From Jannaschia sp. Os4 (GTDB lineage: Bacteria > Pseudomonadota > Alphaproteobacteria > Rhodobacterales > Rhodobacteraceae): a stretch of 64,000 nt of DNA. Within the stretch, counting starts at the first letter, position 1. Each line of letters begins with the position of its first letter. The DNA is taken from NCBI RefSeq assembly GCF_016820245.1, contig NZ_JAFCAR010000004.1:682001-746000 (forward strand), given 5' to 3'. Made by a program: the position numbers and the translations under genes. Shown here one piece after another: positions 39,362 to 63,114 of the stretch. A model generated the notes under the pieces. The model made no database searches and was not told the origin of the DNA. It was given only the letters and a program-made list of their open reading frames with translations.

Positions 39362-39784
39362 TCAGGCGTCGAGCGCGGCGTCCTCGGCCTCGAGCCGGGC
39401 GCGGTCGGCGGCGCCCTTGGCGTCCACGTCCCGGTCGACCAGCTCGATGATCGCCATGGGGGCCATGTCGCCGGTGCGGAAGCCTGCCTTCAGGACGCGG
39501 ACGTAGCCGCCTTGCCGGTCCTTGTAGCGCTCGGCCAGCACGTCCATCAGCTTGGCGACGGCGGCGTCGTCGTGCAGCCGCGAGGCCAGCAGGCGGCGCG
39601 CGTGCAGGTCGCCGCGGCGGGCGAGCGTGATCATCTTCTCGACGATCGGGCGCAGTTCCTTGGCCTTGGGCAGGGTCGTCTTGATCTGCTCGTGCACGAT
39701 GAGCGAGCCAGCCATGTTCTTGAACATCGACTTGCGATGCTCGTGGGTCCGGTTGAGGCGGCGGTATCCGCGGGCGTGGCGCAT
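39362..39784 (-). CDS. rplQ: Ribosomal protein L17
   Basis: A 140-residue 50S protein: [29 protein letters not shown] is the standard L17 N-terminus, and the acidic C-terminal tail ([10 protein letters not shown]) is typical of alphaproteobacteria. It is the last gene of the alpha operon. Between it and rpoA lies a REP-like inverted pair. Confidence 0.97.
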
Positions 39785-39937
39785 GGTGTTACTCCGGTTT
39801 TATGCTTTGTCCGGGGACCGGTGCGTGCCGATCCCTCTCCTATTGGGGCGGGATTGCCCAAGTGCCCCCGTCCGGGGGCGCGTTGCCCGGCAGGTGGGTT
39901 CCGGGCGAAGCCCGGGTTCCACCGAGAGGGCGGCGGC

Positions 39938-39991
39938 GATGGGGTAGAACCCCATCCTACAGGTGCGCGTAGGATGGGGTTTCACCCCATC
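39938..39991. repeat. REP-like pair, family A, between rpoA and rplQ
   Basis: Arms 39938-39960 and 39969-39991 are inverted complements with two mismatches and an 8-base centre. Each arm, read from its outer GTAG... orientation, is GTAG followed by a GATGGGGT-ACCCCATC hairpin. The pair begins 3 bases after the rpoA stop. A second copy is at 49001-49055, also inside the ribosomal cluster. Confidence 0.88.
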
Positions 39992-39993
39992 GA

Positions 39994-41010
39994 TCAGAAG
40001 TCGCTGTCGAACTTCTTGGACAGCTCCTCGATGTTCTCCGGCGGCCAGTCGACGATGTCCATCCCGAGGTGCAGGCCCATGCCCGAGAGCACCTCCTTGA
40101 TCTCGTTGAGGGACTTCCGCCCGAAGTTGGGCGTCCGCAGCATCTCGGCCTCGGTCTTCTGGATGAGGTCGCCGATGTAGACGATATTGTCGTTCTTCAG
40201 GCAGTTGGCCGACCGCACCGACAGCTCCAGCTCGTCCACCTTCTTCAGCAGCAGCGGGTTGAACTCGAGGTCGTCGGCGTCCGAGCCGGACCCGGCGCTC
40301 TCGGGCTCCTCGAAGTTGACGAAGATCTGCAGCTGGTCCTGCAGGATGCGGGCCGCGTAGGCGACCGCGTCGTCGGGGGCGAGGCTGCCGTCCGTCTCCA
40401 GCTTCAGCGTCAGCTTGTCGTAGTCCAGCACCTGCCCCTCGCGGGTCGGCTGCACCTCGTAGGAGACCTTCTTGACCGGCGAGTAGATCGCGTCGATCGG
40501 GATCAGGCCGATGGGCGCGTCCTCGGGCTTGTTGCGGTCGGCGGGGACGTAGCCCTTACCGGTGTTGACCGTCAGCTCCATGTAGAGGTCCGCCCCGTCG
40601 TCGAGGTGGCAGATCACGTGGTCGCGGTTGAGCACCTCGATGCCCGCCGACTCCGAGATGTCGCCGGCGGTGACGACCATCGGCCCCTTGGCGGAGATGG
40701 TCAGGCGCTTGGGCCCCTCCACTTCCATCCGCAGGGACACGCCCTTCAGGTTCAGCACGATGTCGGTCACGTCCTCGCGGACGCCGGACACCGAGGAGAA
40801 CTCGTGCAGGACGTTGTCGATCTGGACGCTGGTGATCGCGGCGCCTTGGAGCGACGAGAGCAGCACGCGGCGCAGCGCGTTGCCGAGCGTCAGGCCGAAG
40901 CCCCGCTCCAGCGGCTCGGCCACGACGGTGGCCTGACGGGCGGGGTTGGTCCCCGGGCGGGTCTCAAGCTGTCCCGGCTTGATCAGTTCCTGCCAGTTCT
41001 TGTGGATCAT
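39994..41010 (-). CDS. rpoA: RNA polymerase alpha subunit
   Basis: A 338-residue alpha subunit. The N-terminal assembly domain shows [36 protein letters not shown]; the C-terminal DNA- and activator-binding domain begins near residue 255 ([45 protein letters not shown]), joined by an acidic linker. It sits in the standard place between rpsK and rplQ. Confidence 0.98.
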
Positions 41011-41137
41011 GCCCTATCCCTCCATCCTTGTGCGTCCCGGGGCGGCGTGGGCGCACGCTCGAGGTTTATCGTTGGCGGTCGTCTCAATGCGGAGGGGGGC
41101 CGCGATCGGCCCCCGTCCGGAATTCCCTGCGAGCGGG

Positions 41138-41533
41138 TCAGACCCGACGGCGCTTCGGCGGGCGGGTGCCGTTGTGCGCGATCGGCGTCACGTCGCGGAT
41201 CGAGGTGATCTGCAGGCCCAGCGCGGCGAGCGCGCGCAGCGCGGACTCGCGGCCCGAGCCGGGACCCTGCACCTCGACCTCGAGAGACTTCATCCCGTGC
41301 TCCTGCGCCTTCTTGCCCGCGTCGTCGGCGGCCATCTGGGCGGCGTAGGGCGTCGACTTGCGCGAGCCCTTGAAGCCCATCGTGCCAGCGGACGACCACG
41401 AGATCGCGTTGCCCTGCACGTCGGAGATCAGGATCTTGGTGTTGTTGAACGACGAGTTCACATGCGCGACGCCGGTCGCGATGTTCTTGCGTTCCTTGCG
41501 CTTGCCAGCGCCACGGCGGGTATCGCGTGCCAT
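41138..41533 (-). CDS. rpsK: Ribosomal protein S11
   Basis: A 131-residue 30S protein; [25 protein letters not shown] and the C-terminal [18 protein letters not shown] are standard S11. It lies 11 bases after rpsM and upstream of rpoA, separated from rpoA by 127 bases. Confidence 0.98.
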
Positions 41534-41544
41534 CTATCCTGCCC

Positions 41545-41913
41545 TCACTTCTTCTTGCCGGCGATAGGCTTCGCGGGGCCCTTGCGCGTGCGTGCGTTGG
41601 TGTGGGTGCGCTGGCCGCGCACCGGCAGGTTGCGGCGATGACGCAGGCCGCGGTAGCAGCCGAGGTCCATCAAGCGCTTCACGTTCATCTGCGTGTCGCG
41701 GCGCAGGTCGCCCTCGACGGTGAAGTTGGCGTCGATGTGCTCGCGGATCTGCAGCACCTCGGCGTCCGACAGCTCGTTGACGCGGCGGGTCGGGTCGATG
41801 CCCACGGCCTCGACGATCTGGTCGGCGGAGGAGCGGCCGATGCCCGTGATGTAGGTCAGGGCGATCGGAACCCGCTTGGCGGTGGGGATGTTGACCCCGG
41901 CGATACGTGCCAA
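41545..41913 (-). CDS. rpsM: Ribosomal protein S13
   Basis: A 122-residue 30S protein with the [27 protein letters not shown]-terminus and [15 protein letters not shown] near the end. First gene of the alpha operon, 180 bases downstream of adk. A T-rich patch (41955-41962) and a terminator for adk lie in that gap, so a separate promoter is likely there. Confidence 0.98.
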
Positions 41914-42014
41914 ATGACGTTCCTTCGTTCGGTTGCGGACCCGTAGCGCCAGGTCCTTTTTTCACAACGCGGGCCGGTCCATCCAAGCTCGGGCGGAACA
42001 GGCGCAAAGCGAAA

Positions 42015-42036
42015 CCGGGAACCCGAAGATTCCCGG
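42015..42036 (-). terminator. Terminator after adk
   Basis: Stem CCGGGAA (42015-42021) with TTCCCGG (42030-42036) and an 8-base loop, followed on the minus strand by TTTCGCTTTG. It would end the secY-adk transcript before rpsM. A second G/C hairpin (CCCGCGC/GCGCGGG near 42065-42083) lies just upstream. Confidence 0.65.
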
Positions 42037-42093
42037 CGAGGGCTGCCACCTATGATGGGCCTTCCCGCGCGTCAAGCGCGGGCGCGCGTCCTG

Positions 42094-42702
42094 TCAAGCA
42101 TTTTCTCGCGCGGGCGTCCGGACGCCGTCCAGCACCGCCGCGATCTCGTCCTCGACCGCGTCCATCGGGCCCAGCCCGTCCACCTTCGTGAGCGCGCCCT
42201 TCGCATGGTAGTACCCGATCAGCGGCGAGGTCTTCTTGTAGTACTCCAGCAGCCGGACCTTCAGGCTCTCGGCGTTGTCGTCGGCGCGCACGGGCTGGCC
42301 CGCCGCCGCCGCCTCGGCCGCCCGGCCCACGATCCGGTCCACGAGCACGTCGTCCACGACCTCCAGCTCGATCACCGCGTCCAGCGCCTGCCCCTTGCGC
42401 GCCAGCAGCTCGCCCAAGGCGTCGGCCTGCGCCAGCGTCCGCGGGAAGCCGTCGAAGATGAAGCCGCCATGCCCCGTGCGGGTGTCGAGCTGCTCCTCGA
42501 TCAGCCCGATGACGATCTCGTCGGTCACGAGCTGGCCCGCGTCCATCACGGCCGCGACCCGGTTGCCCATCTCCGTCCCGGAGGTCCGCGCGGCGCGCAG
42601 CATGTCCCCGGTCGAGAGCTGGACCATGCCGCGCGTCTCGACGAGGCGGCCCGCCTGCGTCCCCTTGCCCGCGCCCGGCGGCCCCAACAGGATGATGTTC
42701 AT
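42094..42702 (-). CDS. adk: Adenylate kinase
   Basis: A 202-residue nucleotide kinase: P-loop [16 protein letters not shown]-binding [21 protein letters not shown] and DRIVGRA. The lid is the short form without the zinc-binding cysteines ([21 protein letters not shown] in its place). It interconverts ATP + AMP and 2 ADP. The start at 42702 was chosen at MNIILLG. It is in its usual place after secY. Confidence 0.97.
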
Positions 42703-42749
42703 GGCGGTCCCTCCCCGACCCTTCGACCCGACCGTGCGGGCGCGCCGCC

Positions 42750-44120
<1,371 letters not shown>

Positions 44121-44144
44121 GATGTGCTTCCCTCTACGCACGAA

Positions 44145-44171
44145 CGCCGCCCCGTAGGGTGCGGGGCGGCG
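44145..44171 (-). promoter_or_regulatory. G/C hairpin between rplO and secY
   Basis: A 9-base perfect stem (CGCCGCCCC 44145-44153 with GGGGCGGCG 44163-44171), loop 9. It sits 48 bases after rplO and 25 bases before secY. The following minus-strand sequence has few T residues, so it is more likely a processing or attenuating structure than a full terminator. Confidence 0.55.
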
Positions 44172-44218
44172 TCGCTGTCGTCAGGTGATGTAGGCGGCGC
44201 CGTCGGGCGCCACAACCG

Positions 44219-44701
44219 TCAGGCGGACGCCGCGTCTTCCGACTTGGGCGTCTGGGTCACGGTCAGCGAGCCGCCGGCCTTCTCGACCGCCTCGACCGCG
44301 CCCTTGGACGCGCCGGTGACGGTGAGCGTGACCTTCGAGGTGATCTCGCCCTTGCCCAGCACGCGGACGCCGTCGAGCCTGCGGCGCACGAGGCCCGAGT
44401 CGACCAGCTCCGTCTCGGTGATCTCGGTGCCCAGCTTGCCCGCGTCGATGAACTTCTGGATCAGGCCGAGGTTCACGACGGCGTAGGACTTGCGGTTCGG
44501 CTTGGTGAAGCCGCGCTTGGGCAGACGCTGGTAGATCGGCATCTGGCCGCCCTCGTAGCCCTTGATGGCCACGCCCGAGCGGGACTTCTGCCCCTTGATG
44601 CCGCGCCCGCCGGTCTTGCCGAGGCCGGAGCCGGGGCCGCGGCCCACGCGCTTGGGCTTGTGGGTGGCGCCGGGGTTGTCCCGGAGTTCGTTGAGTTTCA
44701 T
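44219..44701 (-). CDS. rplO: Ribosomal protein L15
   Basis: A 160-residue 50S protein: [43 protein letters not shown] is standard L15. Start chosen at 44701; the upstream frame is non-coding. In the usual operon it directly follows rpmD, but here 3.4 kb of plus-strand genes separate them, so it needs its own promoter, presumably in 44702-44855. Confidence 0.97.
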
Positions 44702-44855
44702 GTCGCTTCTCCTTTCCGGACGCGGCCCCCGAAGCGAGGTGGGGCCGGACGCGGTTTCGTGGGTGTCCGATGCGGACCGGCGGGCGATAGCGCCCCGCCG
44801 CGGGGGGTTCAAGGGCGCACTCGCCGGATCGCCGCGCCCGCGCTACCCTCCACCC

Positions 44856-45542
44856 ATGCTCCGCGCCGCCCTCGCCCTCTCGCTCGGCCTCGCCGCCCCG
44901 GCGCAGGCGTGCCTGCACGACGCGATGGTGGTGATGGACGCCTCCGCCTCGATGGAGCGGCTGGTCTACGGCACCGACGTCACCCGGATGGAGGACGGGC
45001 GCGCCGCGATGCGCCGCGCCCTGCCCCGCCTGACCGAGACGCGCCGCATCGGCCTCGTGACCTACGGCCCCGGCGGCAGCCAGTCCTGCGACAGCGTCGC
45101 GCTGCGCGTCCCGCCCACCACGGACCCGGCCCCCCTCCTCGCCGTGATCGCCGAGACGGAGCCCGGTGGCTCCACCCCGCTCGTCTCCGCGGTCCAGCAC
45201 GCGGCCGAGGCGCTGCGCTACCGGACCGAGGCCGCGACGATCGTGCTGGTGACGGACGGCAACGACACCTGCGGCGGCACGCCCTGCGCGGCGGGGACGC
45301 GGCTCGCGGCGGAGGGGGCGGACCTGACGGTGCACGTGATCGGCTTCCACTACGCGCGCCACCTGTCCTTCATCGACCGCTCCAGCAACGGCATCTCCTA
45401 CGACAGCGTCGCGCGCTGCCTCGCGGTGCGGACCGGCGGGCAGTACGTCACCGCGCGGGACGCGGACGGGCTTGTGGACGCGCTGTCGCGGACGTTGGGC
45501 TGCGTCCTCGGCGGACGGGCCCGGACGGGGCCGGTCGGGTGA
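44856..45542 (+). CDS. Exported von Willebrand factor A domain protein (copy 1)
   Basis: A 228-residue protein. Signal peptide at residues 1-18 (cleavage after AQA, leaving Cys at the mature N-terminus). One vWA domain fills the rest: MIDAS motif MDASASM (Asp-x-Ser-x-Ser), the middle Thr in GGSTPLVSA and Asp in VLVTDGNDTCGGTPC. Six or more cysteines (for example SCDS, TCGGTPC, RCLAV, LGCV) suggest disulphides in the periplasm. vWA domains bind metal and protein partners; no target is known. Its stop overlaps the start of copy 2. Confidence 0.85.
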   Translation: MLRAALALSLGLAAPAQACLHDAMVVMDASASMERLVYGTDVTRMEDGRAAMRRALPRLTETRRIGLVTYGPGGSQSCDSVALRVPPTTDPAPLLAVIAETEPGGSTPLVSAVQHAAEALRYRTEAATIVLVTDGNDTCGGTPCAAGTRLAAEGADLTVHVIGFHYARHLSFIDRSSNGISYDSVARCLAVRTGGQYVTARDADGLVDALSRTLGCVLGGRARTGPVG

Positions 45543-46231
45543 GGGCCGCGCTGCTGGCCCTGCTGGCCACCCCCGCGATGCCCTGCACCCACGACGCGAT
45601 GCTCGTGCTGGACGGATCGGGCAGCATGGCGGAGATCGGCTACGACACCGGCGCGGCCACGCGGATCGAGGACGCCCGCGCCGCGCTCCGCCGCGCCATG
45701 CCGCAGGTCGAGCCGTTCCGCCGCATCGGCCTCATCGCCTACGGGCCGGGCGGCGCGGGGTCGTGCGACGGCATCACGCTGCACTTCCCGCCGGTGGAGG
45801 CCAGCGCCGCCCCGGCCATCGCCGCCGCCGAGGGGCTGGACCCCGGCGGCCTCACGCCCCTCTCGCGCTCCGTCGAGCGCGCCGCAGCGCTGCTCTCCCA
45901 CCGGACCGAGCCCGCCACGGTCGTCCTCGTCACCGATGGCAACGAGACCTGCGGCGGCACGCCCTGCGCCCTCGGCGCCCGGCTGGCCGCCGAGGCGGCG
46001 GACCTGACGATTCACGTGATCGGCTTCAAGGCCACGCGCGACTTCTTCTCGTGGGACAACCCCGACCAGCAGATTTACGCGGGCGACACCGTCGCCAAGT
46101 GTCTGAGCGACCGCACCGGCGGCCTCTTCGTCGACGCCGACACGGTGGACGAGCTAGTGGCCGCGCTCAACGCGACGCTGGGCTGCGTCATCGGGGCCAT
46201 CCCGCTTCCCCTCGGGCGCGGGATGGGGTGA
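45539..46231 (+). CDS. Exported von Willebrand factor A domain protein (copy 2)
   Basis: A 230-residue paralogue of the preceding protein, starting at a GTG in a 4-base overlap. The signal peptide is short (about 15 residues, ending ATPAMPC). MIDAS motif is LDGSGSM; GGLTPLSRS and VLVTDGNETCGGTPC follow as in copy 1, and both end in a TLGCVxG segment. The two are clearly a tandem duplication (same length, same cysteine spacing), placed inside the interrupted ribosomal cluster. Start codon GTG at 45539 was chosen for the overlap; no good alternative exists. Confidence 0.85.
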   Translation: MRAALLALLATPAMPCTHDAMLVLDGSGSMAEIGYDTGAATRIEDARAALRRAMPQVEPFRRIGLIAYGPGGAGSCDGITLHFPPVEASAAPAIAAAEGLDPGGLTPLSRSVERAAALLSHRTEPATVVLVTDGNETCGGTPCALGARLAAEAADLTIHVIGFKATRDFFSWDNPDQQIYAGDTVAKCLSDRTGGLFVDADTVDELVAALNATLGCVIGAIPLPLGRGMG

Positions 46232-47226: not shown

Positions 47227-48036
47227 ATGATCAGATCCATCGCCTTGGCCACGCTCGCGGCCGCCCCCGCGTTCGCGGACGTCGCGGCCGACCGTGCGGG
47301 CACCACCGACTTCCACGACCCGTCGATAGCTCACGATCCCGCCGACGGCGTCGTGCGCCTCTACGGCGCGGGTGGGCCGCACACCGCGTTCCGAAAGGTC
47401 GCGGACGTCTGGACCGAGCGGACGGGCACGGAGGTCGAGGTCGTCGCCGGCCCCGAAAGCGACTGGACCGGCGAAGCGCAGGCGCAGGCCGACATCCTGT
47501 GGGGCACGTCCGAGCAGTCCATGACCGCCTTCCTGCTGACCTACACGGCCTTCGACCCGGCGGAGGTCGAGCCGATCTACCTGCGCCCCACCGTGATCGC
47601 GGTCGCCGCCGGGAACCCGCTGGGCATCGAAGGCTTCGACGACCTCCTCGCGGACGGCGTGCGCGTCGTCGTCACCGAGGGCGCCGGCGTCTACAACACC
47701 TCCGGCACCGGCACGTGGGAGGACGTGGCCGGCCGCCTCGGGCGGCTCGACGATGTGGCAGGCCTGCGCGCGAACATCGTGGCCTACGCGCTCGGGTCCG
47801 GCGCGTCCTACGGCGTGATCTCGGGCGGGGACGCGGATGCGTGGATCACGTGGCCGAACTGGCCGCTCACGAAGGACGACATCGAGATGGTCGAACTGGC
47901 CCCCGACCGGGTGATCCACCGCGACGTCAACGTCGTCCTGTCGCCCGAGGCCGACGCGGAGGCCCAGACGTTCCTCGACTTCCTCGTCACCGACGAGGCG
48001 CACGCGATCATGGCGACGGAGGGCTGGGTGCGCTGA
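47227..48036 (+). CDS. AcfC-like periplasmic binding protein
   Basis: A 269-residue exported protein with a short signal peptide (cleavage after AFA) and a strong ribosome binding site (AGGAGGAG) 6 bases before the ATG. LYGAGGPHTAFRKVADVW, ADILWGTSEQSMTAFLLTY, GAGVYNTSGTGTWEDVAGRLG and ITWPNWPL match the accessory colonization factor AcfC group, a type-2 binding-protein fold related to sulphate/molybdate binding proteins. No ABC permease is adjacent. The ligand is unknown. A hairpin at 48044-48071 follows. Confidence 0.82.
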   Translation: MIRSIALATLAAAPAFADVAADRAGTTDFHDPSIAHDPADGVVRLYGAGGPHTAFRKVADVWTERTGTEVEVVAGPESDWTGEAQAQADILWGTSEQSMTAFLLTYTAFDPAEVEPIYLRPTVIAVAAGNPLGIEGFDDLLADGVRVVVTEGAGVYNTSGTGTWEDVAGRLGRLDDVAGLRANIVAYALGSGASYGVISGGDADAWITWPNWPLTKDDIEMVELAPDRVIHRDVNVVLSPEADAEAQTFLDFLVTDEAHAIMATEGWVR

Positions 48037-48043: not shown

Positions 48044-48071
48044 ACGCCCCGACCGCTTCCGGCCGGGGCGT
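48044..48071. terminator. Hairpin between acfC-like gene and rpmD
   Basis: ACGCCCCG (48044-48051) pairs with CGGGGCGT (48064-48071). It lies between two converging genes and could serve both strands. Neither side has a long T run, so its efficiency is uncertain. Confidence 0.55.
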
Positions 48072-48112: not shown

Positions 48113-48298
48113 TCAGCCCCGCTCCTCCACGATCTCCACCAGATGCGGGATCTTGTTGATCATGCCGCGCACGGAGGGGGTGTCCTCCAGCTCGCGGGTC
48201 TTGTGCATCTTGTTCAGGCCCAGCCCGATCAGCGTGGCGCGCTGCTCGGCGGGGCGGCGGATGGGCGAGCCCACCTGCTTGACGACGATCGTAGCCAT
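48113..48298 (-). CDS. rpmD: Ribosomal protein L30
   Basis: A 61-residue 50S protein ([31 protein letters not shown]). It lies 3 bases after rpsE. Its usual neighbour rplO is displaced 3.4 kb downstream. Confidence 0.97.
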
Positions 48299-48301
48299 GG
48301 A

Positions 48302-48895
48302 TCAGGCCTCCTCGGCGACGGGCGCCTGCTCGCCGTCCACCATCGGGGCGTCGGGCTCGCGGCGCAGGATGTCAGCCACCTTCTTGCCGCGGCGGGCCGC
48401 GACGTTGCGGGGCGACTGCTGCTTGCTCAGGCCGTCCATGGTGGCGCGGATCATGTTGTAGGGGTTCTGGGAGCCCAGCGACTTGGCGACGACGTCGCCC
48501 ACGCCCAGCATCTCGAACACAGCGCGCATCGGACCACCGGCGATGATTCCGGTGCCCTCGGGGGCGGTCCGCATGACGACGCGGCCGGCACCGTGGCGCC
48601 CGTCGATGTCGTGGTGCAGCGTGCGCCCGTCCTTCAGGGCGACGCGGATCATCTGGCGGCGGGCCTGCTCGGTGGCCTTGCGGATGGCCTCGGGGACCTC
48701 CTTGGCCTTGCCCTTGCCGAAGCCCACGCGGCCCTTCTGGTCGCCCACGACCACAAGCGCCGCGAAGCCGAAGCGCTTGCCGCCCTTCACCGTCTTGGAG
48801 ACGCGGTTGATGGCGACCAAGCGGTCGGCGAATTCCGGGTTCTCGTCCCGGTCCCGTCCGCGGCCGCGGCCGCGGTTGTCGTCACGTCCTGCCAT
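48302..48895 (-). CDS. rpsE: Ribosomal protein S5
   Basis: A 197-residue 30S protein. The N-terminus is Arg/Asp-rich (residues 1-18), then [27 protein letters not shown] and [25 protein letters not shown], as in S5. Start chosen at MAGRDD with GAGG just before it. A family A REP-like pair separates it from rplR upstream. Confidence 0.97.
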
Positions 48896-49000
48896 GAGGA
48901 CCTCCGTGATTGGCGGGCGCTGCGGCCCGGTGGTGTCGATCCAAGTGGCCGGCATGGCCCCGGATCATCGGGAGGGCCGCGTGGCCCCCCTCAGGCGCAT

Positions 49001-49055
49001 GATGGGGTGGAACCACATCCTACGGCTGCGGGGTAGGATGGGGTTGTACCCCATC
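49001..49055. repeat. REP-like pair, family A, between rplR and rpsE
   Basis: Arms 49001-49023 and 49033-49055 are inverted complements with a few mismatches and a 9-base centre. The right arm is GTAG plus a GATGGGGT-ACCCCATC hairpin, identical to the 39969 arm except for two loop bases. It begins 8 bases after the rplR stop. Confidence 0.87.
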
Positions 49056-49062
49056 TTCCCGG

Positions 49063-49955: not shown

Positions 49956-49965
49956 TTCCCTCTCC

Positions 49966-52274: not shown

Positions 52275-52275
52275 C

Positions 52276-55256: not shown

Positions 55257-56900
55257 ATGCGCACGCCCTCGATCCCCCCCCACGCCACGCAACTCGCCGC
55301 GGAGCATCTGGCGGGCAAGCTGTCCCGGCGCGAGTTCCTGACGCGCAGCACCTCGCTCGGCCTGACGGCGGCGGCGGCCTACGGCCTGATCGGCGCGGCG
55401 GTCCCGACGGCGGCCCATGCCCAAGCCCAAGAGGGCGGCACCATTCGCATCCAGTCGGACGTGCGCCCGCTGAAGGACCCGCGCACCTACGACTGGCCGC
55501 AGATGTCCAACTACTCGCGCGGCTGGCTGGAATACCTCGTGGAGTATCAGCGCGACGGCTCCTTCGCGCCGATGCTGCTGGAGTCGTGGGAGATCAACGA
55601 GGACGCCACCGCCTACACGCTGAACGTCCGGCCCGGCGTGACGTGGTCCGACGGAGAGCCCTTCACCGCCGAGGACGTGGCCCACAACATCCGCCGCTGG
55701 TGCGAGGGCGGGGTCGAGGGCAACTCCATGGCCGCGCGCATGGCCGCGCTGATCGACGAGGGCACGAACGAGGCGCGCGAGGGCGCGATCACGGTCGTGG
55801 ACGACACCACGGTGGCGCTGGCCTTGGGCAACCCGGACATCACGCTGATCGCGGGCTTCTCGGACTACCCGGCGGCGATCGTGCCGCAGGACTTCTCGGG
55901 CGACCCGATGACGTCCAAGGGCACCGGCCCCTACGTGCCCGAGGCGCTGGAGGTCGGCGTCGAGGCGTCCATGGTCCGCGGCGACCACGCGTGGTGGGGC
56001 ACGGAGGTCTTCGGCGGCCCCTATGCCGACCGCATCGTCTACGTCGACTACGGGACCGACCAGTCCGCCCACTTCGCGGCCGCCGAGTCCGAGGAGGTCG
56101 ACATGACCTACGAGTCCTTGGGCGAGTTCGTGGAGCTGTTCGACACGATCGGCTGGGAGCGCTCGGAGGTGGTCACGGCCAACACCATCTGCATCCGCCC
56201 CAATCAACAGGCCGAGGTGGACGGCATGCGCCCCTACGCGGACGCGCGCGTGCGCCGGGCGCTGGCGCTCGCGGTGTCGAACGACGTGCTTCTGGAGCTG
56301 GGCTACGCGGGCCTCGGCACGGTGGCGGAGAACCACCACGTCTGCCCGATCCATCCCGAATACGCCGAACTGCCCGCGCCGGTGTACGACCCCGCCCGCG
56401 CCCTCGCGCTGCTGGAAGAGGCGGGCTTGAGCGACTTCGAGCACGACCTAATCTCGATCGAGGATAACTGGCGTCGCGACACCTGCGACGCGGCGGCCGC
56501 GCAGCTGCGCGACGCGGGGATCGCGGTGCGCCGCACGGTGCTGCCGGGCTCCACGTTCTGGAACGACTGGGCGAAGTACCCGTTCTCGGCCACCGACTGG
56601 GCGCAGCGGCCCTTGGGCGTGCAGGTGCTGGCCTTGGCGTACCGCTCGGGCGAGGCGTGGAACGAGAGCGGGTTCGCCAACGCGGAGTTCGACCAGACGC
56701 TGCAGGAGGCGCTGTCGATCGCGGACGCCGACGCGCGGCGGGACCTGTCGGCGCGGCTGCAGGCGATCATGCAGGAGGAGGGGGTGGTCATCCAGCCCTA
56801 CTGGCGCTCGACCTTCCGGCACTTCCGCCCCGGGCTGGTGGGCGCGGAGCAGCACCCGACCTTCGAGATCCACGTCTACAAGCTGGGCCTCGCGGCCTGA
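55257..56900 (+). CDS. Tat-exported peptide-binding protein (SBP_bac_5), orphan
   Basis: A 547-residue substrate-binding protein. The start chosen (ATG 55257) precedes a twin-arginine signal SRREFLTRSTSLGLTAAAAYGLIGAA, so it is exported folded. The mature part carries EINEDATAYTLNVRPGVTWSDGEPFTAEDVAHNIRRW, the SBP_bac_5 signature, and DNDVLL-like VSNDVLLELGYAG. It should bind a peptide or similar ligand. No permease or ATPase genes are adjacent; it stands alone, on the strand opposite to the ribosomal genes, and may feed a transporter encoded elsewhere (for example the operon at 14705-20627). Confidence 0.88.
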   Translation: MRTPSIPPHATQLAAEHLAGKLSRREFLTRSTSLGLTAAAAYGLIGAAVPTAAHAQAQEGGTIRIQSDVRPLKDPRTYDWPQMSNYSRGWLEYLVEYQRDGSFAPMLLESWEINEDATAYTLNVRPGVTWSDGEPFTAEDVAHNIRRWCEGGVEGNSMAARMAALIDEGTNEAREGAITVVDDTTVALALGNPDITLIAGFSDYPAAIVPQDFSGDPMTSKGTGPYVPEALEVGVEASMVRGDHAWWGTEVFGGPYADRIVYVDYGTDQSAHFAAAESEEVDMTYESLGEFVELFDTIGWERSEVVTANTICIRPNQQAEVDGMRPYADARVRRALALAVSNDVLLELGYAGLGTVAENHHVCPIHPEYAELPAPVYDPARALALLEEAGLSDFEHDLISIEDNWRRDTCDAAAAQLRDAGIAVRRTVLPGSTFWNDWAKYPFSATDWAQRPLGVQVLALAYRSGEAWNESGFANAEFDQTLQEALSIADADARRDLSARLQAIMQEEGVVIQPYWRSTFRHFRPGLVGAEQHPTFEIHVYKLGLAA

Positions 56901-56946: not shown

Positions 56947-56966
56947 GGGGCGCCCGAAGGCGCCCC
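56947..56966 (-). terminator. Terminator after rplP
   Basis: A perfect 8-base stem (GGGGCGCC 56947-56954 with GGCGCCCC 56959-56966) and CGAA/TTCG tetraloop. On the minus strand it is followed by TTTCCTTTAC, so it is a good rho-independent terminator for rplB-rplP. It also lies 46 bases after the stop of the plus-strand binding-protein gene and may serve both. Confidence 0.82.
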
Positions 56967-57042: not shown

Positions 57043-57468
57043 TTACTGGGTGACGTGCCAGTCCTCGCGCATGACGGTGCGGGTCTTCACCGGCAGCTTC
57101 ATGGCGGCGAGGCGCAGCGCCTCGCGGGCGACGGCGTCGGAGACGCCGTCGATCTCGAACATCACGCGGCCCGGCTTCACCTTGCAGGCCCAGTAGTCGA
57201 CCGAGCCCTTGCCTTTACCCATCCGCACCTCGGTGGGCTTGGACGTGACCGGCAGGTCCGGGAAGATCCGGATCCAGACCCGGCCCTGACGCTTCATATG
57301 GCGCGTCATGGCCCGGCGGGCGGCCTCGATCTGGCGCGCGGTAACGCGCTCCGGCTCCGTGGCCTTGAGGCCGTAGGTGCCGAAGTTCAGCGTCTCGCCG
57401 CCCTTGGCGTTGCCGTGGATGCGGCCCTTGTGGGCCTTGCGGTACTTGGTGCGCTTCGGTTGCAGCAT
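57043..57468 (-). CDS. rplP: Ribosomal protein L16
   Basis: A 141-residue 50S protein: [36 protein letters not shown] and [12 protein letters not shown]-like [33 protein letters not shown]. Last gene of the rplB-rplP segment, 13 bases after rpsC. Confidence 0.98.
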
Positions 57469-57481
57469 CTAACGATCCTCC

Positions 57482-58203
<722 letters not shown>

Positions 58204-58204
<1 letters not shown>

Positions 58205-58584
58205 CAGGCCGCTCCTTCCTGCTGACGCACGACGATCGTGATCTCGGCGAACGGCTTGATGATCCGCCCGAACCGGCCACGGGCCCGGGGACGCCCGCGC
58301 TTCATGGTGAGGTTCTTGCCGACCCACGCCTCGGCCACGACGAGCTCGTCGACGTCCAGGTTGTGGTTGTTCTCCGCGTTGGCGATCGCCGACTGGAGGC
58401 ACTTCTTGACGTCCAGCGAGACCTTCTTCTTGGAGAAGGTGAGATCGGCGAGCGCCTTCTCGACGGACTTGCCGCGGATCATGCCGGCCACGAGGTTCAG
58501 CTTCTGCGGGCTCGTCTTGAGCATCCGCAGCTTGGCCATCGCCTCGTTGTCGGCGACGCGGCGGGGGTTCTTGTCCTTGCTCAT
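58204..58584 (-). CDS. rplV: Ribosomal protein L22
   Basis: A 126-residue 50S protein: [40 protein letters not shown] and [15 protein letters not shown]. Overlaps rpsS by 4 bases. Confidence 0.98.
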
Positions 58585-58859
58585 TTGCGCTTCGCCTTCT
58601 TGTCGGCGGCGTGACCGTAGTAGGTCCGCGTCGGCGAGTACTCACCGAACTTCTGGCCGATCATCTCTTCCGAGACCTGCACGGGGACGTGCTTGCGGCC
58701 GTTGTACACGCCGAAGGTGAGACCTACGAACTGGGGCAGGATGGTCGAGCGGCGCGACCAGATCTTGATCACGTCCGAGCGCCCGGACTCGCGGGCCTTC
58801 TCAGCCTTGCGGAGCACGTGGGCGTCGACGAACGGACCCTTCCAAACGGAGCGGCTCAT
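58581..58859 (-). CDS. rpsS: Ribosomal protein S19
   Basis: A 92-residue 30S protein: [60 protein letters not shown]. It lies 1 base after rplB. Confidence 0.98.
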
Positions 58860-58860
58860 G

Positions 58861-59703
58861 TCAGCGGCCCTTCTTCTTGGCGTGGCGCGACCGGATGATC
58901 AGTCGGCTGGACGCCTTGTTCTTGTTGCGGGTGCGCGCGCCCTTGGTGGGCTTGCCCCACGGCGTCACCGGGTGACGGCCGCCCGAGGTGCGGCCCTCGC
59001 CGCCGCCGTGCGGGTGGTCGATTGGGTTCATGACCACGCCGCGGACCGACGGGCGCTTGCCCATGTGGCGGACGCGGCCGGCCTTGCCGAGGTTCTGGTT
59101 CGAGTTGTCGGGGTTCGAGACCGCGCCCACCGTCGCCATGCACTCCTGCCGCACGAGGCGGAGCTCGCCCGACGACAGGCGCAACTGGGCGTAGCCGCCG
59201 TCCCGGCCCACGAACTGGGCGTAGGTGCCCGCCGCGCGCGCGATCTGGCCGCCCTTGCCGGGCTTGAGCTCGACGTTGTGGACGATCGTGCCGATCGGCA
59301 TGCCTTGGAACGGCATGGCGTTGCCCGGCTTGATGTCCGCGCGGTCCGACGCGACCACCTGGTCGCCCACCGCGAGGCGCTGGGGCGCGAGGATGTAGGT
59401 CCGCTCGCCGTCCTCGTAGCGCACGAGGGCGATGAAGGCCGTGCGGTTGGGATCGTACTCGATCCGCTCCACGACCGCCGTCTGGTCGCGCTTGGTGCGC
59501 TTGAAGTCCACGATCCGGTAGAGGCGCTTCGCCCCCCCACCACGACGACGCATGGTGATCCGTCCGGTGTTGTTCCGGCCCGCCTTCTTCGTGAGACCCT
59601 CGACGAGGGCCTTCACGGGGCGTCCCTTCCACAGCTCCGAACGGTCGATCAGCACCAGCCCACGCTGGCCCGGCGTCGTCGGCTTGTACGACTTGAGTGC
59701 CAT
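58861..59703 (-). CDS. rplB: Ribosomal protein L2
   Basis: A 280-residue 50S protein: [28 protein letters not shown], and the highly conserved [34 protein letters not shown] with the peptidyl-transferase-proximal His. Start chosen at 59703. In the usual order it follows rplW directly; here 1.3 kb intervene, so 59704-59800 probably carries a promoter. Confidence 0.98.
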
Positions 59704-59802
59704 TTGACTGTCTTCCGTTGTCTGTGACGACGCAGATGGCGCCGCCGGTGTGTAGGCCCCCGTAGGTGCCCGGTCGTCCCGCCCCGCCGCACATGACGAC
59801 GA

Positions 59803-59823
59803 AGCCCCGGCAGGGCCGGGGCT
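59803..59823 (-). terminator. G/C hairpin upstream of rplB
   Basis: AGCCCCGGC (59803-59811) and GCCGGGGCT (59815-59823) form a 9-base stem with a 3-base loop between the phyH remnant and rplB. On the minus strand the sequence after it is TCGTCGTCA, without a long T run. It may end the toxin-antitoxin transcript before rplB. Confidence 0.55.
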
Positions 59824-59938: not shown

Positions 59939-60289
59939 ATGCCGATGCCCCTCGGCCACGTCAGCGGCGCCGACCGCGCCGCCTTCCGCCGCGACGGCGC
60001 GGTGGCGCTGCGCGGGGCCTTCGACCCCCACTGGCTGGCCCTGCTGCGCTGGGACCTCGACGTCGGGGACTGCATCTTCTTCGACATGGCGACGCTGCAC
60101 GGCGGGCTGGCGGCGACGACGCCGACCGAGACCGTGCGCCGGTTCACGTTGCGGATGACCGGCCCGGCCGGGATGATCCGCTATCGCGGCGACTGGGCGG
60201 CGGGCGAGCGGGCGCATTTCGAGGCGGCGGACTACGGCGAGGGGGACCGGATCGATGGGGCGTTCTTCCCGCGGCTCTGGCCGCGCTAG
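59939..60289 (+). pseudogene. Internally deleted phytanoyl-CoA dioxygenase remnant
   Basis: A 116-codon open frame whose first ~30 residues ([25 protein letters not shown]) are the start of a PhyH-family dioxygenase and whose next residues ([22 protein letters not shown], then RRFTLRMTG) are its C-terminal third. The central ~140 residues, with the HxD iron ligands, are missing at an in-frame junction near residue 36. The product cannot have the normal active site. It lies in the break between rplW and rplB, on the opposite strand. Confidence 0.75.
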
Positions 60290-60671: not shown

Positions 60672-60905
60672 TCAGTCGCCCTCCCACTCCTTCAATTCCT
60701 CCTCGGACAGGGGGTCGAAGAACCCCTCGGGCGGCTCGCCCACCAAGCCCTTGAGGCTGCCGAACACGACTTTCCGACGCGTCTGAGGCGGTACGAGTTC
60801 CGCCGCAGGCCGGCCATGCCGCGTGATAATCACGCGCTCGCCCGCCTCCACAGCCTTCAGGAGTTTGGACAGGTTGGTCTTCGCTTCGTGAACCGAGGCT
60901 TCCAT
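60672..60905 (-). CDS. Phd/YefM-type antitoxin
   Basis: A 77-residue protein: MEASVHEAKTNLSKLLKAVEAGERVIITRHGRPAAELVP is the Phd/YefM DNA-binding fold, followed by an acidic toxin-binding tail (DPLSEEELKEWEGD). The start at 60905 was chosen for the GGAGGG 8 bases before it; an ATG at 60932 is possible but lies within the candidate operator. It should repress its own promoter with the PIN toxin. Confidence 0.87.
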   Translation of the reverse strand: MEASVHEAKTNLSKLLKAVEAGERVIITRHGRPAAELVPPQTRRKVVFGSLKGLVGEPPEGFFDPLSEEELKEWEGD

Positions 60906-60918
60906 CGCACCCTCCGGG

Positions 60919-60939
60919 TATGGCTTAGCCATAGCTAAG
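60919..60939 (-). promoter_or_regulatory. Nested palindromes before the Phd-type antitoxin
   Basis: Two overlapping perfect palindromes: TATGGC-TTA-GCCATA (60919-60933) and CTTAGC-CATA-GCTAAG (60924-60939). They lie 14 bases before the antitoxin start, the usual place for Phd-family autoregulation, and are T/A-rich in a G/C-rich setting, so they may also overlap a -10 element. Confidence 0.75.
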
Positions 60940-60972
60940 TCCGATCCGGCGACGCGGCAACCCGGAACGCGA

Positions 60973-60998
60973 AAGGCCCCCGCGCTGGCGGGGGCCTT
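60973..60998 (-). terminator. Terminator after rplW
   Basis: A perfect 11-base stem (AAGGCCCCCGC 60973-60983 with GCGGGGGCCTT 60988-60998) and 4-base loop, 26 bases after the rplW stop, followed on the minus strand by TTTCGCG. It is a strong candidate for ending the rpsJ-rplC-rplD-rplW transcript. Confidence 0.85.
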
Positions 60999-61023
60999 CC
61001 GGATGCCTTGGAGGCGACTGGCC

Positions 61024-61308
61024 TCAGAGCCCGGTCGACACGTCGATCGTGTTGCCCTCGACGAGGGTCACGTAGGCCTTCTTGGTGTCGGCGCGGCGGC
61101 CCTTCTGGCCGCGGAAGCGCTTGACCTTGCCCTTGGCGACGGAGGTGTTCACCGCCTTGACCTTCACGCCGAACAGCTCCTCGACGGCGGCCTTGATCTG
61201 CGGCTTGGCCGCATCCATCGCCACCTCGAAGACCACCGCGTTCTGCTCGGAGGCGAGCGTCGCCTTCTCGGTGATGATCGGCTTCCGGATCACGTCGTAG
61301 GTGTTCAT
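61024..61308 (-). CDS. rplW: Ribosomal protein L23
   Basis: A 94-residue 50S protein at the exit tunnel: [52 protein letters not shown]. Overlaps rplD by 4 bases. The usual next gene, rplB, is displaced 1.3 kb downstream. Confidence 0.98.
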
Positions 61309-61922
61309 TTCAGACGCTCCTGCAGGGCTTCGACACCGGCGCGGGTCAGCACGAGCGTGTCCCGCTTGAGGATGTCGTAGACGTTGGCGCCCATCGTCGG
61401 CAGCACGTCGACGCCGTCGAGGTTCCGCGCGGCCTGCGCGAAGTTCTCGTCGACCGACGCGCCGTCGATGACCAGCGCGCGCTTCCAGCCGAGATCCTTG
61501 ACCTGCTTGGCCAGACCGGCGGTCTTGCCCTCGGCCGAGGCGGTCTCGATCACCACGAGGTTGCCCGACGACGCCTTGTCGCTGAGCGCCATGCGCAGGC
61601 CCAGCTTGCGGACCTTCTTGGGCAGGTCGTGGGCGTGGCTCCGCGGGGTCGGGCCCTTGTAGACGCCGCCCTTGCGGAAGATCGGCGCCTTGCGCGAGCC
61701 GTGGCGGGCGCCGCCCGACCCCTTCTGGCGGACGATCTTCTTGGTCGAGTAGCTGACCTCGGAGCGCGTCTTGACCTTGTGCGTGCCCTGCTGCGCCTTG
61801 TTGCGCTGCCAGCGCACGACGCGGTGCAGGATGTCGGCCCGCGGCTCGACGCCGAAGGTCTCGTCCGCGAGGTCGATCTCGCCCGCGGCAGAGCCGTCGA
61901 GATTGATGACGTTCAGTTTCAT
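61305..61922 (-). CDS. rplD: Ribosomal protein L4
   Basis: A 205-residue 50S protein: [49 protein letters not shown] is the conserved tunnel loop. In E. coli L4 represses the S10 operon. ATGA overlaps with rplC before it and with rplW after it. Confidence 0.98.
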
Positions 61923-62791
61923 TGATCCCCCTCCGGCTTGGCGTCGGAGTTGTCGGTGGTCGCGGATTCCTCGGCGATGGACGCCTCGGCTTCCTTGAGC
62001 GCGGCTTCCTCGGCGGCGGCCTGCTCGGCGGCGAGCGCCTCCTCGGCGGCCTTGGCCTCGGCTTCCGCTTGGGCCGCGGCCTCGGCGGCGGCGCGCTCGG
62101 CCTCGCGGCGCGCGGACATCAGCGCGGCGGGCAGGATGGCGTTCTCGGGGAACGGCTTCTTGACCGCGTCCTTCATCGTCACCCAGCCGCCCTTGGAGCC
62201 CGGCACCGAGCCCTTGACCATGATCAGGCCGCGGTCGGTGTCGGTCTTGACGACCTGCAGGTTCTGCGTCGTCACGCGGGCGGCGCCCATGTGGCCGGCC
62301 ATCTTCTTGCCCTTGAACACGCGGCCCGGGTCTTGGCACTGGCCTGTCGAGCCGTGCGAGCGGTGCGAGATCGACACGCCGTGCGAGGCGCGCAGGCCGC
62401 CGAAGTTGTGCCGCTTCATGGCACCGGCGAAGCCCTTGCCGATCGAGGTGCCCGTCACGTCGACGAACTGGCCCTCGAAGTAGTGGTCGGCGATGATCTC
62501 CTCGCCCACGGGGATCAGGGCGTCCGCGTCGACGCGGAACTCCACGATCTTGCGCTTGGGCTCGACCCCGGCGGCGGAGAAGACGCCGCGCATGGCCTTG
62601 GACGTGCGCTTGGCCTTGGCCGTGCCCGCGCCCAACTGGACGGAGGTGTAGCCGTGCTTGTCGTCCGTGCGCTGGCCGACGACCTGGAGGGCGTCGAGCT
62701 GCAGCACGGTGACGGGCACCTGGCGGCCGTCCTCTTGGAAGAGGCGGGTCATGCCCACCTTCTTGGCGATGACTCCCGAACGGAGCGTCAT
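61919..62791 (-). CDS. rplC: Ribosomal protein L3 with Ala/Glu-rich tail
   Basis: A 290-residue 50S protein. The L3 core ([18 protein letters not shown] ... [27 protein letters not shown] ... GSKGGWVTM) ends near residue 225. A C-terminal extension of about 60 residues ([28 protein letters not shown] and following) has the composition of a long charged helix. Such tails occur in some alphaproteobacterial L3 proteins. L3 usually has ~210 residues. Confidence 0.97.
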
Positions 62792-62805
62792 GGCGAACCC
62801 TCCCC

Positions 62806-63114
62806 TCAGACCTTGATCTCGACGTCCACGCCGGCCGCGAGGTCGAGCTTCATCAGCGCGTCCACGGTCTGCGGGGTCGGATCGACGATGTCGAGCATGC
62901 GCTTGTGCGTGCGGATCTCCCACTGGTCGCGTGACTTCTTGTCGACGTGGGGGCCGCGCAGCACGGTGAAGCGCTCGATCTTGTTCGGCAGCGGGATCGG
63001 GCCGCGCACCTGCGCGCCGGTCCGCTTGGCGGTGTTCACGATCTCCTGCGTGCTGGCGTCCAGCACTCGGTAGTCGAACGCCTTGAGCCGGATTCGGATG
63101 TTCTGGCTTTTCAT
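62806..63114 (-). CDS. rpsJ: Ribosomal protein S10
   Basis: A 102-residue 30S protein: [72 protein letters not shown]. Start chosen at 63114 by family length. It is the first gene of the S10 operon; upstream there is a plus-strand gene rather than tuf. Confidence 0.98.

What the first reader, a model, noticed from the sequence alone, without database searches (positions are those of the whole stretch)
39362..63114. S10-spc-alpha ribosomal supercluster opened at three places
All genes from rpsJ to rplQ are present in the canonical order, yet unrelated genes separate rplW from rplB (1.3 kb), rplP from rpmC (4.5 kb) and rpmD from rplO (3.4 kb). Most inserted genes lie on the opposite strand. Hairpins resembling terminators follow rplW (60973-60998) and rplP (56947-56966), so the cluster is probably transcribed as several units, each needing its own promoter. 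The usual tuf/fusA genes are also missing upstream of rpsJ.
Basis: partly seen in the sequence, partly recalled or inferred. Interest (0 to 1): 0.75.

Follow-up and report, generated by a model that had tools for sequence, protein, structure and literature searches.

The report
Ribosomal gene cluster with four autonomous units
In one family of bacteria the usually unbroken cluster of ribosome genes looks built of four self-contained units, each with likely start and stop signals and a folded RNA at its front, and foreign genes have repeatedly settled at the seams between the units.

Summary
The three gaps are real: 1,320, 4,554 and 3,411 bp. 'tuf/fusA missing' is wrong: they lie just past the window end, 1,480 bp upstream of rpsJ. 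In a family sample the same three junctions exceed 300 bp in 41/91, 61/91 and 42/69 loci; no other r-protein junction there does, except secY-rpsM, which holds adk. Contents turn over at two of the seams, and the open/closed state changes at least 15-19 times per seam on the tree. The seams look like transcription-unit borders. Strong terminator-like hairpins follow rplW, rplP, rpmD and rplQ far more often than other genes. A CTTGAC-N17-TATA-type promoter precedes rplB, rpmC and rplO mainly when the seam is open. Structured leaders head the units: Rfam's L2 leader at rplB, and covariation-supported leaders without Rfam match at rpsJ, rpmC and rplO. In one single-contig genome exactly rplB-rplP sits 206 kb away with its leader. 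Function is inferred from sequence; no transcript or binding data were seen.

The parts
61024..63114 (-). Unit 1: rpsJ-rplC-rplD-rplW
   Evidence: Pfam S10, L3, L4, L23; coordinates
57043..59703 (-). Unit 2: rplB-rpsS-rplV-rpsC-rplP
   Evidence: Pfam L2, S19, L22, S3, L16; coordinates
48113..52488 (-). Unit 3: rpmC-rpsQ-rplN-rplX-rplE-rpsN-rpsH-rplF-rplR-rpsE-rpmD
   Evidence: Pfam
39362..44701 (-). Unit 4: rplO-secY-adk-rpsM-rpsK-rpoA-rplQ
   Evidence: Pfam; adk 42094-42702 by translation, named by eye
63159..63229 (-). Candidate rpsJ leader RNA (model R3)
   Evidence: 70.1 bits, window sequence is in the model's training set; covariation score 0/500 shuffles
63256..63287 (-). Promoter-like site upstream of rpsJ
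   Evidence: score 7.5 with the model trained at rpmC; place printed
60975..60996 (-). Terminator-like hairpin after rplW (GC stem followed by TTTC)
60672..60932 (-). Island A: Phd/YefM-type antitoxin
   Evidence: Pfam PF02604, NCBIfam TIGR01552
60286..60687 (-). Island A: PIN-domain toxin (VapC-like)
   Evidence: Pfam PF01850; no NCBIfam match
59939..60289 (+). Island A: probable remnant of a PhyH-type oxygenase gene
   Evidence: sub-threshold Pfam PF05721, 17.6 bits
59837..59868 (-). Promoter-like site upstream of rplB: CCCTTGACC then GCGTAGGCG
   Evidence: score 6.9 with the rpmC-trained and 8.4 with the rplO-trained model
59803..59823 (-). Hairpin between promoter-like site and L2 leader; similar hairpins in many open loci
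   Evidence: read by eye and the listing; no test made
59705..59771 (-). L2-Alphaproteobacteria ribosomal protein leader (RF03142)
   Evidence: 50.1 bits, gathering score 37.8
56947..56966 (-). Terminator-like hairpin after rplP
55257..56900 (+). Island B: solute-binding protein SBP_bac_5
   Evidence: Pfam PF00496
54295..54963 (+). Island B: LysE-type exporter, N-terminus possibly damaged
   Evidence: Pfam PF01810 from profile position 21
53305..53907 (-). Island B: 2OG-Fe(II) oxygenase family TIGR02466, long-term resident of this seam
   Evidence: 240.8 bits; in 92 of 102 rplP-rpmC islands
53026..53253 (-). Island B: MazE-like antitoxin (doc_partner)
   Evidence: TIGR02609 over cut-off; Pfam MazE just below cut-off
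52634..53029 (-). Island B: Doc (Fic-fold) toxin
   Evidence: TIGR01550, Pfam Fic
52566..52597 (-). Promoter-like site upstream of rpmC: CCCTTGCGC then GCGATAGG
   Evidence: score 7.4 with the rplO-trained model (threshold 5.3); 4.4 with the rplB-trained one (threshold 6.5, not passed)
52486..52571 (-). Candidate rpmC leader RNA (model R2; window sequence is in its training set)
   Evidence: 57.5 bits; covariation score 0/500
48045..48070 (-). Terminator-like hairpin after rpmD
47227..48036 (+). Island C: solute-binding protein SBP_bac_11
   Evidence: Pfam PF13531
46241..47182 (+). Island C: hexose kinase of the 1-PFK family
   Evidence: TIGR03168 over cut-off
44850..46231 (+). Island C: two adjacent, tandemly duplicated VWA-domain proteins
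   Evidence: Pfam PF13519; repeats D1, D3, D4
44784..44815 (-). Promoter-like site upstream of rplO: CCCTTGAAC then GCTATCGC
   Evidence: score 7.9 with the rplB-trained model (threshold 5.2); 0.4 with the rpmC-trained one (threshold 4.5, not passed)
44699..44767 (-). Candidate rplO leader RNA with pseudoknot at the ribosome-binding site (model R1; window sequence is in its training set)
   Evidence: 63.2 bits; covariation score 0/500; pseudoknot test

Best explanation
In this family (Rhodobacteraceae, judged by the named relatives) the S10-spc-alpha supercluster is four autonomous modules: rpsJ-rplW, rplB-rplP, rpmC-rpmD and rplO-rplQ. When a seam is open, the module upstream usually ends in an intrinsic terminator and the module downstream usually has its own CTTGAC-type promoter (comparative evidence shown here). 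Each module opens with its own structured mRNA leader, which most likely lets one of its ribosomal proteins repress translation of that module (leaders shown; binding and repression inferred). Because the modules no longer need to be transcribed together, the DNA between terminator and next promoter is neutral ground. Accessory genes enter and leave there, and whole modules can relocate. The inserts of this window (two toxin-antitoxin pairs, a 2OG oxygenase, transport proteins, a sugar kinase, VWA proteins) are tenants, not parts of the ribosomal system.
For: Seam specificity: >300 bp in 41/91, 61/91, 42/69 loci of a family sample against 0 at the other r-protein junctions except secY-rpsM, which holds adk. 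Strong terminator-like hairpins: 70/109, 91/130, 75/105 after rplW, rplP, rpmD and 31/39 after the last gene rplQ; none at 15 of the 22 other genes tabulated, and at most 14/60 at the rest. Promoters: motifs trained separately at three seams agree. With the better of two models from other seams they are found in 41/78, 87/103 and 53/65 open versus 4/41, 0/20 and 0/23 closed. Leaders: RF03142 at rplB; covariation scores 0.448 v 0.135, 0.387 v 0.170 and 0.380 v 0.186 shuffled, 0/500 each. Held-out loci: R1 in 15/18, R2 in 30/34; no held-out hit is identical to a training row. Relocation of exactly rplB-rplP in G059 with its leader. Turnover of contents and 19, 15 and 15 state changes on the tree.
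Against: No transcript data. With the less favourable cross-model the open counts fall to 40/78, 61/103 and 29/65. In closed loci the tested stretch is mostly coding DNA of the gene before, so a lack of promoters there is partly a matter of room. The promoter-open link survives tree correction at rpmC and rplO (median p 0.031, 0.016) but not at rplB (0.25). In G059 and G134, rpmC has no promoter-like site above threshold. Strong hairpins also occur in closed loci (16/26 after rplW at 60-140 bp) and after tuf (36/83), so some may be attenuators that are read through. The rpsJ leader pattern was matched in only 70 of 136 loci. Ligands of the leaders are unknown.
Confidence: 0.82

Rival explanations
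1. The supercluster is still one long transcript; the hairpins are leaky attenuators and the islands are carried along by read-through.
For: Strong hairpins also exist in closed loci. Toxin-antitoxin pairs and the 2OG gene in this window run with the operon.
Against: Six inserted genes in the window oppose the operon. Promoter-like sites are common when seams are open. Whole modules sit elsewhere in some genomes.
Confidence: 0.07
2. The islands are selected for: toxin-antitoxin pairs or the 2OG oxygenase gain from, or help, the ribosomal genes (addiction to an essential locus, or modification of a ribosomal protein), and that is why the seams open.
For: The TIGR02466 oxygenase sits in 92/102 rplP-rpmC islands. 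It stays beside rpmC in G059 and near rplP in G134.
Against: At rplW-rplB only 3/105 genus pairs share any insert, and the window's island A shares sequence with no other island compared. The 2OG gene lies in both orientations (35 with, 18 against the operon).
Confidence: 0.1
3. The leaders are real structured RNAs but answer to something other than ribosomal proteins, for example temperature or initiation control by the pseudoknot alone.
For: No ligand tested; the rplO pseudoknot touches the ribosome-binding site, which suffices for other kinds of control.
Against: Each lies directly before r-protein genes, like known r-protein leaders; the rplB one is curated as such in Rfam.
Confidence: 0.18

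Closest known systems
L2-Alphaproteobacteria ribosomal leader, RF03142 (Eckert and Weinberg 2020, PMC7247131; passages and part of Table 1 seen)
   Same: Present at rplB over gathering score. Table 1 lists regulated genes rplB, rpsS, rplV, rpsC, four of the five genes of unit 2.
   Different: The table rates the motif '?'; the passages seen do not tie it to a split operon. The leaders at rpsJ, rpmC and rplO gave no Rfam match at E<=1 in the window and three relatives. A word search of that paper's main text found no L29, rplO or Rhodobacter.
rpsJ motif of Peptostreptococcaceae (PMC11109978, passages) and S10 leaders of Firmicutes/Clostridia (passage of PMC7247131)
   Same: A structured element in the 5' UTR of rpsJ.
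   Different: Other phylum; the structures were not compared here beyond the Rfam scan.
[quoted passage not shown] passages seen)
   Same: A small number of genes enters between operons, later the operons disconnect.
   Different: The insertion events described in the passages seen lie between rpoBC and str, between str and S10, or between rplL and rsmC. Here two seams lie inside classical S10 and one inside classical spc; they recur across a family and coincide with promoter-like sites and leaders.
Classical E. coli S10, spc and alpha operons (L4 and S8 control as summarised in a passage of PMC2704228; S4 control of alpha recalled)
   Same: Gene content and order.
   Different: Unit borders are shifted: two breaks within S10, one within spc, none at the S10/spc border (rpsQ-rplN 0/92 over 300 bp).

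Membership tests
RF03142 L2 leader | Score over Rfam gathering threshold directly upstream of rplB | tested here: met
   50.1 v 37.8 bits at 59705-59771; in 92 of 120 family genomes at E<=0.001, 70 over cut-off
Ribosomal protein leaders (rpsJ, rpmC, rplO candidates) | Conserved secondary structure with covariation | tested here: met
   Covariation score and cells paired: 0/500 shuffles reach them in each, and all slid versions are lower. The weaker measure 'pairs with a change on both sides' is reached by 9, 4 and 67 of 500 shuffles (rplO, rpmC, rpsJ), and two slid versions equal it for rplO
Ribosomal protein leaders (rpsJ, rpmC, rplO candidates) | Located in the 5' UTR next to an r-protein gene, and only there | tested here: met
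   One strong hit per genome in 18/18 (rplO), 18/18 (rpmC), 17/18 (rpsJ) genus genomes; all other hits have E above 0.005, 0.02 and 0.004; at most 150 first-look candidates per genome were scored
Ribosomal protein leaders (rpsJ, rpmC, rplO candidates) | Structure touches ribosome-binding site or a terminator | tested here: inconclusive
   Met for rplO (pseudoknot up to the start codon: mean 6.51 Watson-Crick pairs v 5.66 with swapped partners, highest of 200 swaps 5.89); not examined for rpsJ and rpmC
Ribosomal protein leaders (rpsJ, rpmC, rplO candidates) | Binds an r-protein encoded in the unit and represses it | not testable with these tools
   needs binding and reporter assays
Classical contiguous S10/spc/alpha operons | Contiguous genes without unrelated inserts | tested here: not met
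   three gaps of 1.3-4.6 kb
Integrase-type genomic island | Integrase or transposase gene, tRNA site or flanking direct repeats | tested here: not met
   No integrase or transposase among the inserted proteins scanned; no direct repeat of 16 bp or more flanks the islands; no tRNA in L009, which covers window 58001-64000 and the 12 kb beyond, so islands B and C were not scanned for tRNAs

The most novel reading that the evidence does not exclude
A whole bacterial family has rewired its main ribosomal supercluster into four feedback circuits, each with its own leader RNA. Three of these (before rpsJ, rpmC and rplO, the last a pseudoknot over the start site) are undescribed r-protein leader classes. 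This uncoupling is what made one of the most conserved gene clusters in bacteria open to gene insertion and to relocation of whole modules.
Probability: 0.6. Interest if true: 0.72.

Novelty: new variant of a known kind. Interest (0 to 1): 0.62.

Why it matters
The S10-spc-alpha cluster is a textbook case of conserved gene order (recalled). A lineage in which it is opened repeatedly at fixed seams makes a standing question testable: whether co-transcription and shared autoregulation hold ribosomal genes together. It also yields three candidate regulatory RNAs and natural experiments (relocated modules) with which to test them.

Tried and rejected
Missing tuf/fusA: rejected. Assembly artefact: rejected by recurrence in many assemblies. 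Mobile-element islands: no integrase or transposase among scanned inserts, no flanking direct repeats. Seams as merely the longest ancestral spacers: rejected; in the 36 loci L055-L090, mostly other alphaproteobacteria, they have median 20, 3 and 18 bp, shorter than rpsQ-rplN (60) or rplO-secY (144), which stay closed in the family sample. A first promoter search on 200 bp upstream of rplO found the leader instead of a promoter, which is how the leader was noticed. A loose terminator score flagged rpsJ (74/105) and rplO (46/83) too; with the strict score (16 or more) rpsJ drops to 0/105 and rplO to 13/83. A first pattern for the rpsJ leader matched only 6 loci and was loosened (70 of 136). Paper searches naming r-protein leaders with Rhodobacteraceae, Rhodobacterales or rplO gave nothing relevant; by the tool's note the library lacks most subscription journals.

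Selections to know of: leader sequences were picked by short patterns. A1 took 70 of 94 distinct loci, then L176 was dropped (rplO inverted). A2 took 70 of 122, then L181 was dropped (gap 25 bp). A3 took 44 of 70, then five (L092, L156, L176, L179, L199) were left out by hand without a test. The A1 pattern fixed part of helix 1, the A3 pattern the 3' side of one helix, the A2 pattern the inner loop and, loosely, the 3' side of helix 1; helix 2 of A1, which covaries most, was not part of its pattern. One search was given 69 of 80 named loci and the window. Two named loci are the same sequences as unnamed ones (L021 = L195, L053 = L161) and are counted twice in the pooled counts. Loci whose flanking genes lie on different strands (1, 2 and 1 at the three seams) are outside the gap counts.
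Full report
What is there. The window is bases 682,001-746,000 of contig 4 of a 3.54 Mb genome. On its minus strand lie rpsJ-rplC-rplD-rplW | rplB-rpsS-rplV-rpsC-rplP | rpmC-rpsQ-rplN-rplX-rplE-rpsN-rpsH-rplF-rplR-rpsE-rpmD | rplO-secY-adk-rpsM-rpsK-rpoA-rplQ (Pfam; adk by eye). The bars are gaps of 1,320, 4,554 and 3,411 bp. rpsG, fusA and tuf follow just beyond the window, with a 1,480 bp gap before rpsJ and a 184-residue open frame without a Pfam match between fusA and tuf.

Contents. Island A: a Phd-type antitoxin with a PIN toxin, plus a probable PhyH remnant. Island B: SBP_bac_5, LysE, a TIGR02466 2OG oxygenase, and a MazE-like antitoxin with Doc. Island C: SBP_bac_11, a 1-PFK-type kinase and two VWA proteins. 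Six of these eleven genes, remnant aside, oppose the ribosomal strand.

Not a local quirk. I drew 120 genomes of the family; 111 had an L16 match, and I fetched the stretch around it in the 110 besides the window, plus the 19 other genomes of the genus. Gaps over 300 bp occur at rplW-rplB in 41 of 91 loci, rplP-rpmC 61 of 91, rpmD-rplO 42 of 69 and tuf-rpsJ 12 of 78; at fusA-tuf 2 of 50. No other r-protein junction exceeds 300 bp in that sample, apart from secY-rpsM, which holds adk (59/59 over 300 bp, 6/59 over 1,000). In the genus one rplR-rpsE gap is 306 bp. In the 44 named loci L011-L054 the seams are open in 23/36, 24/34 and 10/18, and one rplO-secY gap exceeds 300 bp (L052, labelled Robiginitomaculum, 459 bp). 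In the 36 loci L055-L090, mostly other alphaproteobacteria with a few labelled Rhodobacteraceae, the three seams are closed except one 1,071 bp rplW-rplB gap (L056, labelled Rhodobacteraceae); that set shows rare other breaks (rpsJ-rplC 1, rplO-secY 3, tuf-rpsJ 2). On a FastTree tree of 133 loci the open/closed state changes at least 19, 15, 15 and 10 times for the three seams and tuf-rpsJ. Counts cannot tell gain from loss.

Turnover. Among islands over 600 bp, with the 2OG gene excluded, 3 of 105 genus pairs share insert sequence at rplW-rplB, 11 of 171 at rplP-rpmC and 67 of 91 at rpmD-rplO. The last seam is thus stable in the genus: VWA relatives were found at it in 14 loci besides the window among the loci. 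The 2OG oxygenase is in 92 of 102 rplP-rpmC islands, in both orientations (35 with, 18 against, among the 111 loci; 7 more lie downstream of rplP where rpmC is not on the stretch, 2 elsewhere, 49 have none in the stretch). Its solved relatives 2rg4 and 3bvc are listed as uncharacterised.

Terminators. I scored GC-rich stems followed by T runs in the 120 nt after each stop codon in 130 loci (genus and family). Strong ones follow rplW in 70/109, rplP 91/130, rpmD 75/105 and the terminal gene rplQ 31/39. Of the 22 other genes tabulated 15 have none; the rest are rpsK 14/60, rplO 13/83, rplR 10/107, rpoA 4/42, rpsQ 2/110, rplD 1/107 and rpsE 1/106. tuf, at the str/S10 border, has 36/83. By state, strong hairpins follow rplW in 44/55 open (>300 bp) and 16/26 closed (60-140 bp) loci, rplP 59/79 and 4/12, rpmD 47/55 and 4/16.

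Promoters. Bipartite motifs learned separately from open loci upstream of rplB (72), rpmC (102) and rplO (64) came out alike: CTTGAC- or CTTGCC-type, about 17 nt, cTAtAcg-type. Each seam was then tested with models from the other two seams, thresholds set at the 95th percentile of shuffles. With the better model, at fixed thresholds: rplB 41/78 open v 4/41 closed (<140 bp); rpmC 87/103 v 0/20; rplO 53/65 v 0/23. With the other model: rplB 40/78 v 1/41, rpmC 61/103 v 0/20, rplO 29/65 v 0/23. Reverse-strand controls gave 0 to 11 hits per test of 65 to 103 loci. In closed loci the tested stretch is mostly coding DNA, so part of the contrast is a matter of room. At gaps of 140-300 bp, without room for most genes, promoters are already present at rpmC (16/20 and 9/20 with the two models) and rplO (7/13 and 4/13) but rarely at rplB (2/24 with either). 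This suggests that promoters can precede insertion. On independent pairs of the tree the link is significant at rpmC (median p 0.031) and rplO (0.016), not at rplB (0.25). In the genus, sites pass in 13/18, 17/19 and 8/15 loci; the window's own rplO site fails with the rpmC-trained model and passes with the rplB-trained one, and its rpmC site passes with the rplO-trained and fails with the rplB-trained one. The rpsJ seam follows the same rule: 17/20 when tuf-rpsJ exceeds 300 bp, 8/42 at 100-300, 1/28 under 100, 24/27 where the gap is not measurable.

Leaders. Rfam finds its L2-Alphaproteobacteria leader at 59705-59771 before rplB. It occurs in 92 of 120 family genomes at E<=0.001 (70 over cut-off) and in 2 of 57 genomes drawn from the class, both of this family. 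Three further conserved elements lie before rplO, rpmC and rpsJ. None was matched by Rfam at E<=1 in the window or in L141, L188 and L091. rplO: 69 sequences, 9 pairs, 96.6% of cells paired, covariation score 0.448 v 0.135 in shuffles. In addition the hairpin loop pairs with the sequence just before the start codon: 92 of 102 loci could be parsed, 91 of these with 5-8 Watson-Crick pairs, on average 6.51 v 5.66 with swapped partners, more than in any of 200 swaps (highest 5.89). This is a pseudoknot over the initiation site. rpmC: 69 sequences, 11 pairs, 95.8%, 0.387 v 0.170. rpsJ: 39 sequences, 16 pairs, 82.4%, 0.380 v 0.186; one inner pair is A-U in 25 and U-A in 14. The covariation score is reached by 0/500 shuffles in each, and slid versions score lower; the count of pairs changed on both sides is weaker evidence (9, 4 and 67 of 500). 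Related sequences can exceed shuffles without structure, so the held-out tests matter more. The rpsJ element is not universal: its pattern was matched in 70 of 136 loci.

Held-out tests. Models R1 (rplO) and R2 (rpmC) were searched in 80 named loci; no hit is identical to a training row, and one each (L020) is over 90% alike. R1 hit 15 of the 18 L011-L054 loci that hold rplO, R2 30 of 34 that hold rpmC. All but one (L036, 45 nt off) end within 5 nt of the inferred start codon, and the misses are closed loci with gaps of 14-85 bp. None of L055-L090 was hit at E<=0.1; R1 had two further weak hits (E 0.08). R3 (rpsJ) hit 23 of 37 given L011-L054 loci, two of them weakly (L040 in part, L018), and none of 32 given from L055-L090. 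In whole genomes each model gives one strong hit per genus genome: 18/18, 18/18, 17/18; 7, 7 and 4 of these 18 genomes were in the training sets. Other hits have E above 0.005 (R1), 0.02 (R2) and 0.004 (R3).

Natural experiments. In 18 of the 173 loci L011-L054 and L091-L219, rpmC is absent from at least 7 kb downstream of rplP; in 11 more there is too little room to tell. In G059, a single-contig genome, tuf-rpsJ-rplC-rplD-rplW is followed by the 2OG gene and then rpmC, while rplB-rpsS-rplV-rpsC-rplP lies 206 kb away with the L2 leader about 2.3 kb before rplP: exactly unit 2 has left the cluster. In G134, rpmC to rplQ lies 249 kb from rplP on one contig. In G027 and G048 rpmC is inverted relative to rplP. 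In G098 about 20 kb separate rplP from rpmC. G011 and G064 have the parts in the interior of different contigs; G074 and G094 may be contig breaks. All seven rpmC copies fetched from such genomes keep the R2 leader, one weakly (L224, 32.7 bits); five of seven have a promoter-like site (one, L222, only just), G059 and G134 do not.

Reading. The simplest account is modular: each module has promoter, leader, genes and terminator, and the DNA between modules is free to receive genes. What is shown: seam specificity, signals and their association with open seams, covariation, relocation. What is inferred: promoter and terminator activity, repression by r-proteins, neutrality of inserts. Prior work describes insertion followed by disconnection of operons of this cluster in Gammaproteobacteria and Bacilli (PMC8046335, passages), the L2 leader (PMC7247131, passages) and an rpsJ motif in another phylum (PMC11109978, passages). 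I saw nothing on the rpmC and rplO leaders, on an rpsJ leader in this family, or on the seams, within the searches.

Noticed in passing
L111, L112, L115, L116, L117, L150, L166, L201, L037 upstream of rpmC: Most of these closed loci carry a different conserved element before rpmC: GGAAAAGCG, a hairpin, then ACUUCUGAUG-like sequence. It may be a second rpmC leader type; not tested.
   Followed up: no
53305-53907: TIGR02466 2OG oxygenase is tied to the rplP-rpmC seam across the family; ribosomal oxygenases are known elsewhere (recalled), so a ribosomal substrate is worth testing.
   Followed up: partly
65795-66349 (window-extended coordinates, L009:7795-8349): A 184-residue lipoprotein-like frame (by eye) between fusA and tuf, without Pfam match or relative among the 139 other loci held.
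   Followed up: partly
G000:C4:776204-776770: Second EF-Tu-like match, same score as the first, about 29 kb upstream of it.
   Followed up: no
52634-53253 and 60286-60932: Two unrelated, apparently intact toxin-antitoxin pairs (MazE-like with Doc, Phd with PIN) sit in two seams of an essential cluster, in the same direction as it.
   Followed up: partly
44121-44218 between rplO and secY: By eye a terminator-like hairpin lies between rplO and secY; loosely scored ones occur in 46 of 83 loci, yet this spacer is never over 300 bp in the family sample (0/69).
   Followed up: no
59803-59823: A GC hairpin between the rplB promoter-like site and the L2 leader, similar in many open loci (by eye); possible attenuator.
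   Followed up: no
L188:733-824: Sub-threshold Rfam match to Alpha_RBS (24.5 v 38 bits), the S4-regulated alpha-operon element, near the alpha genes of a relative.
   Followed up: no
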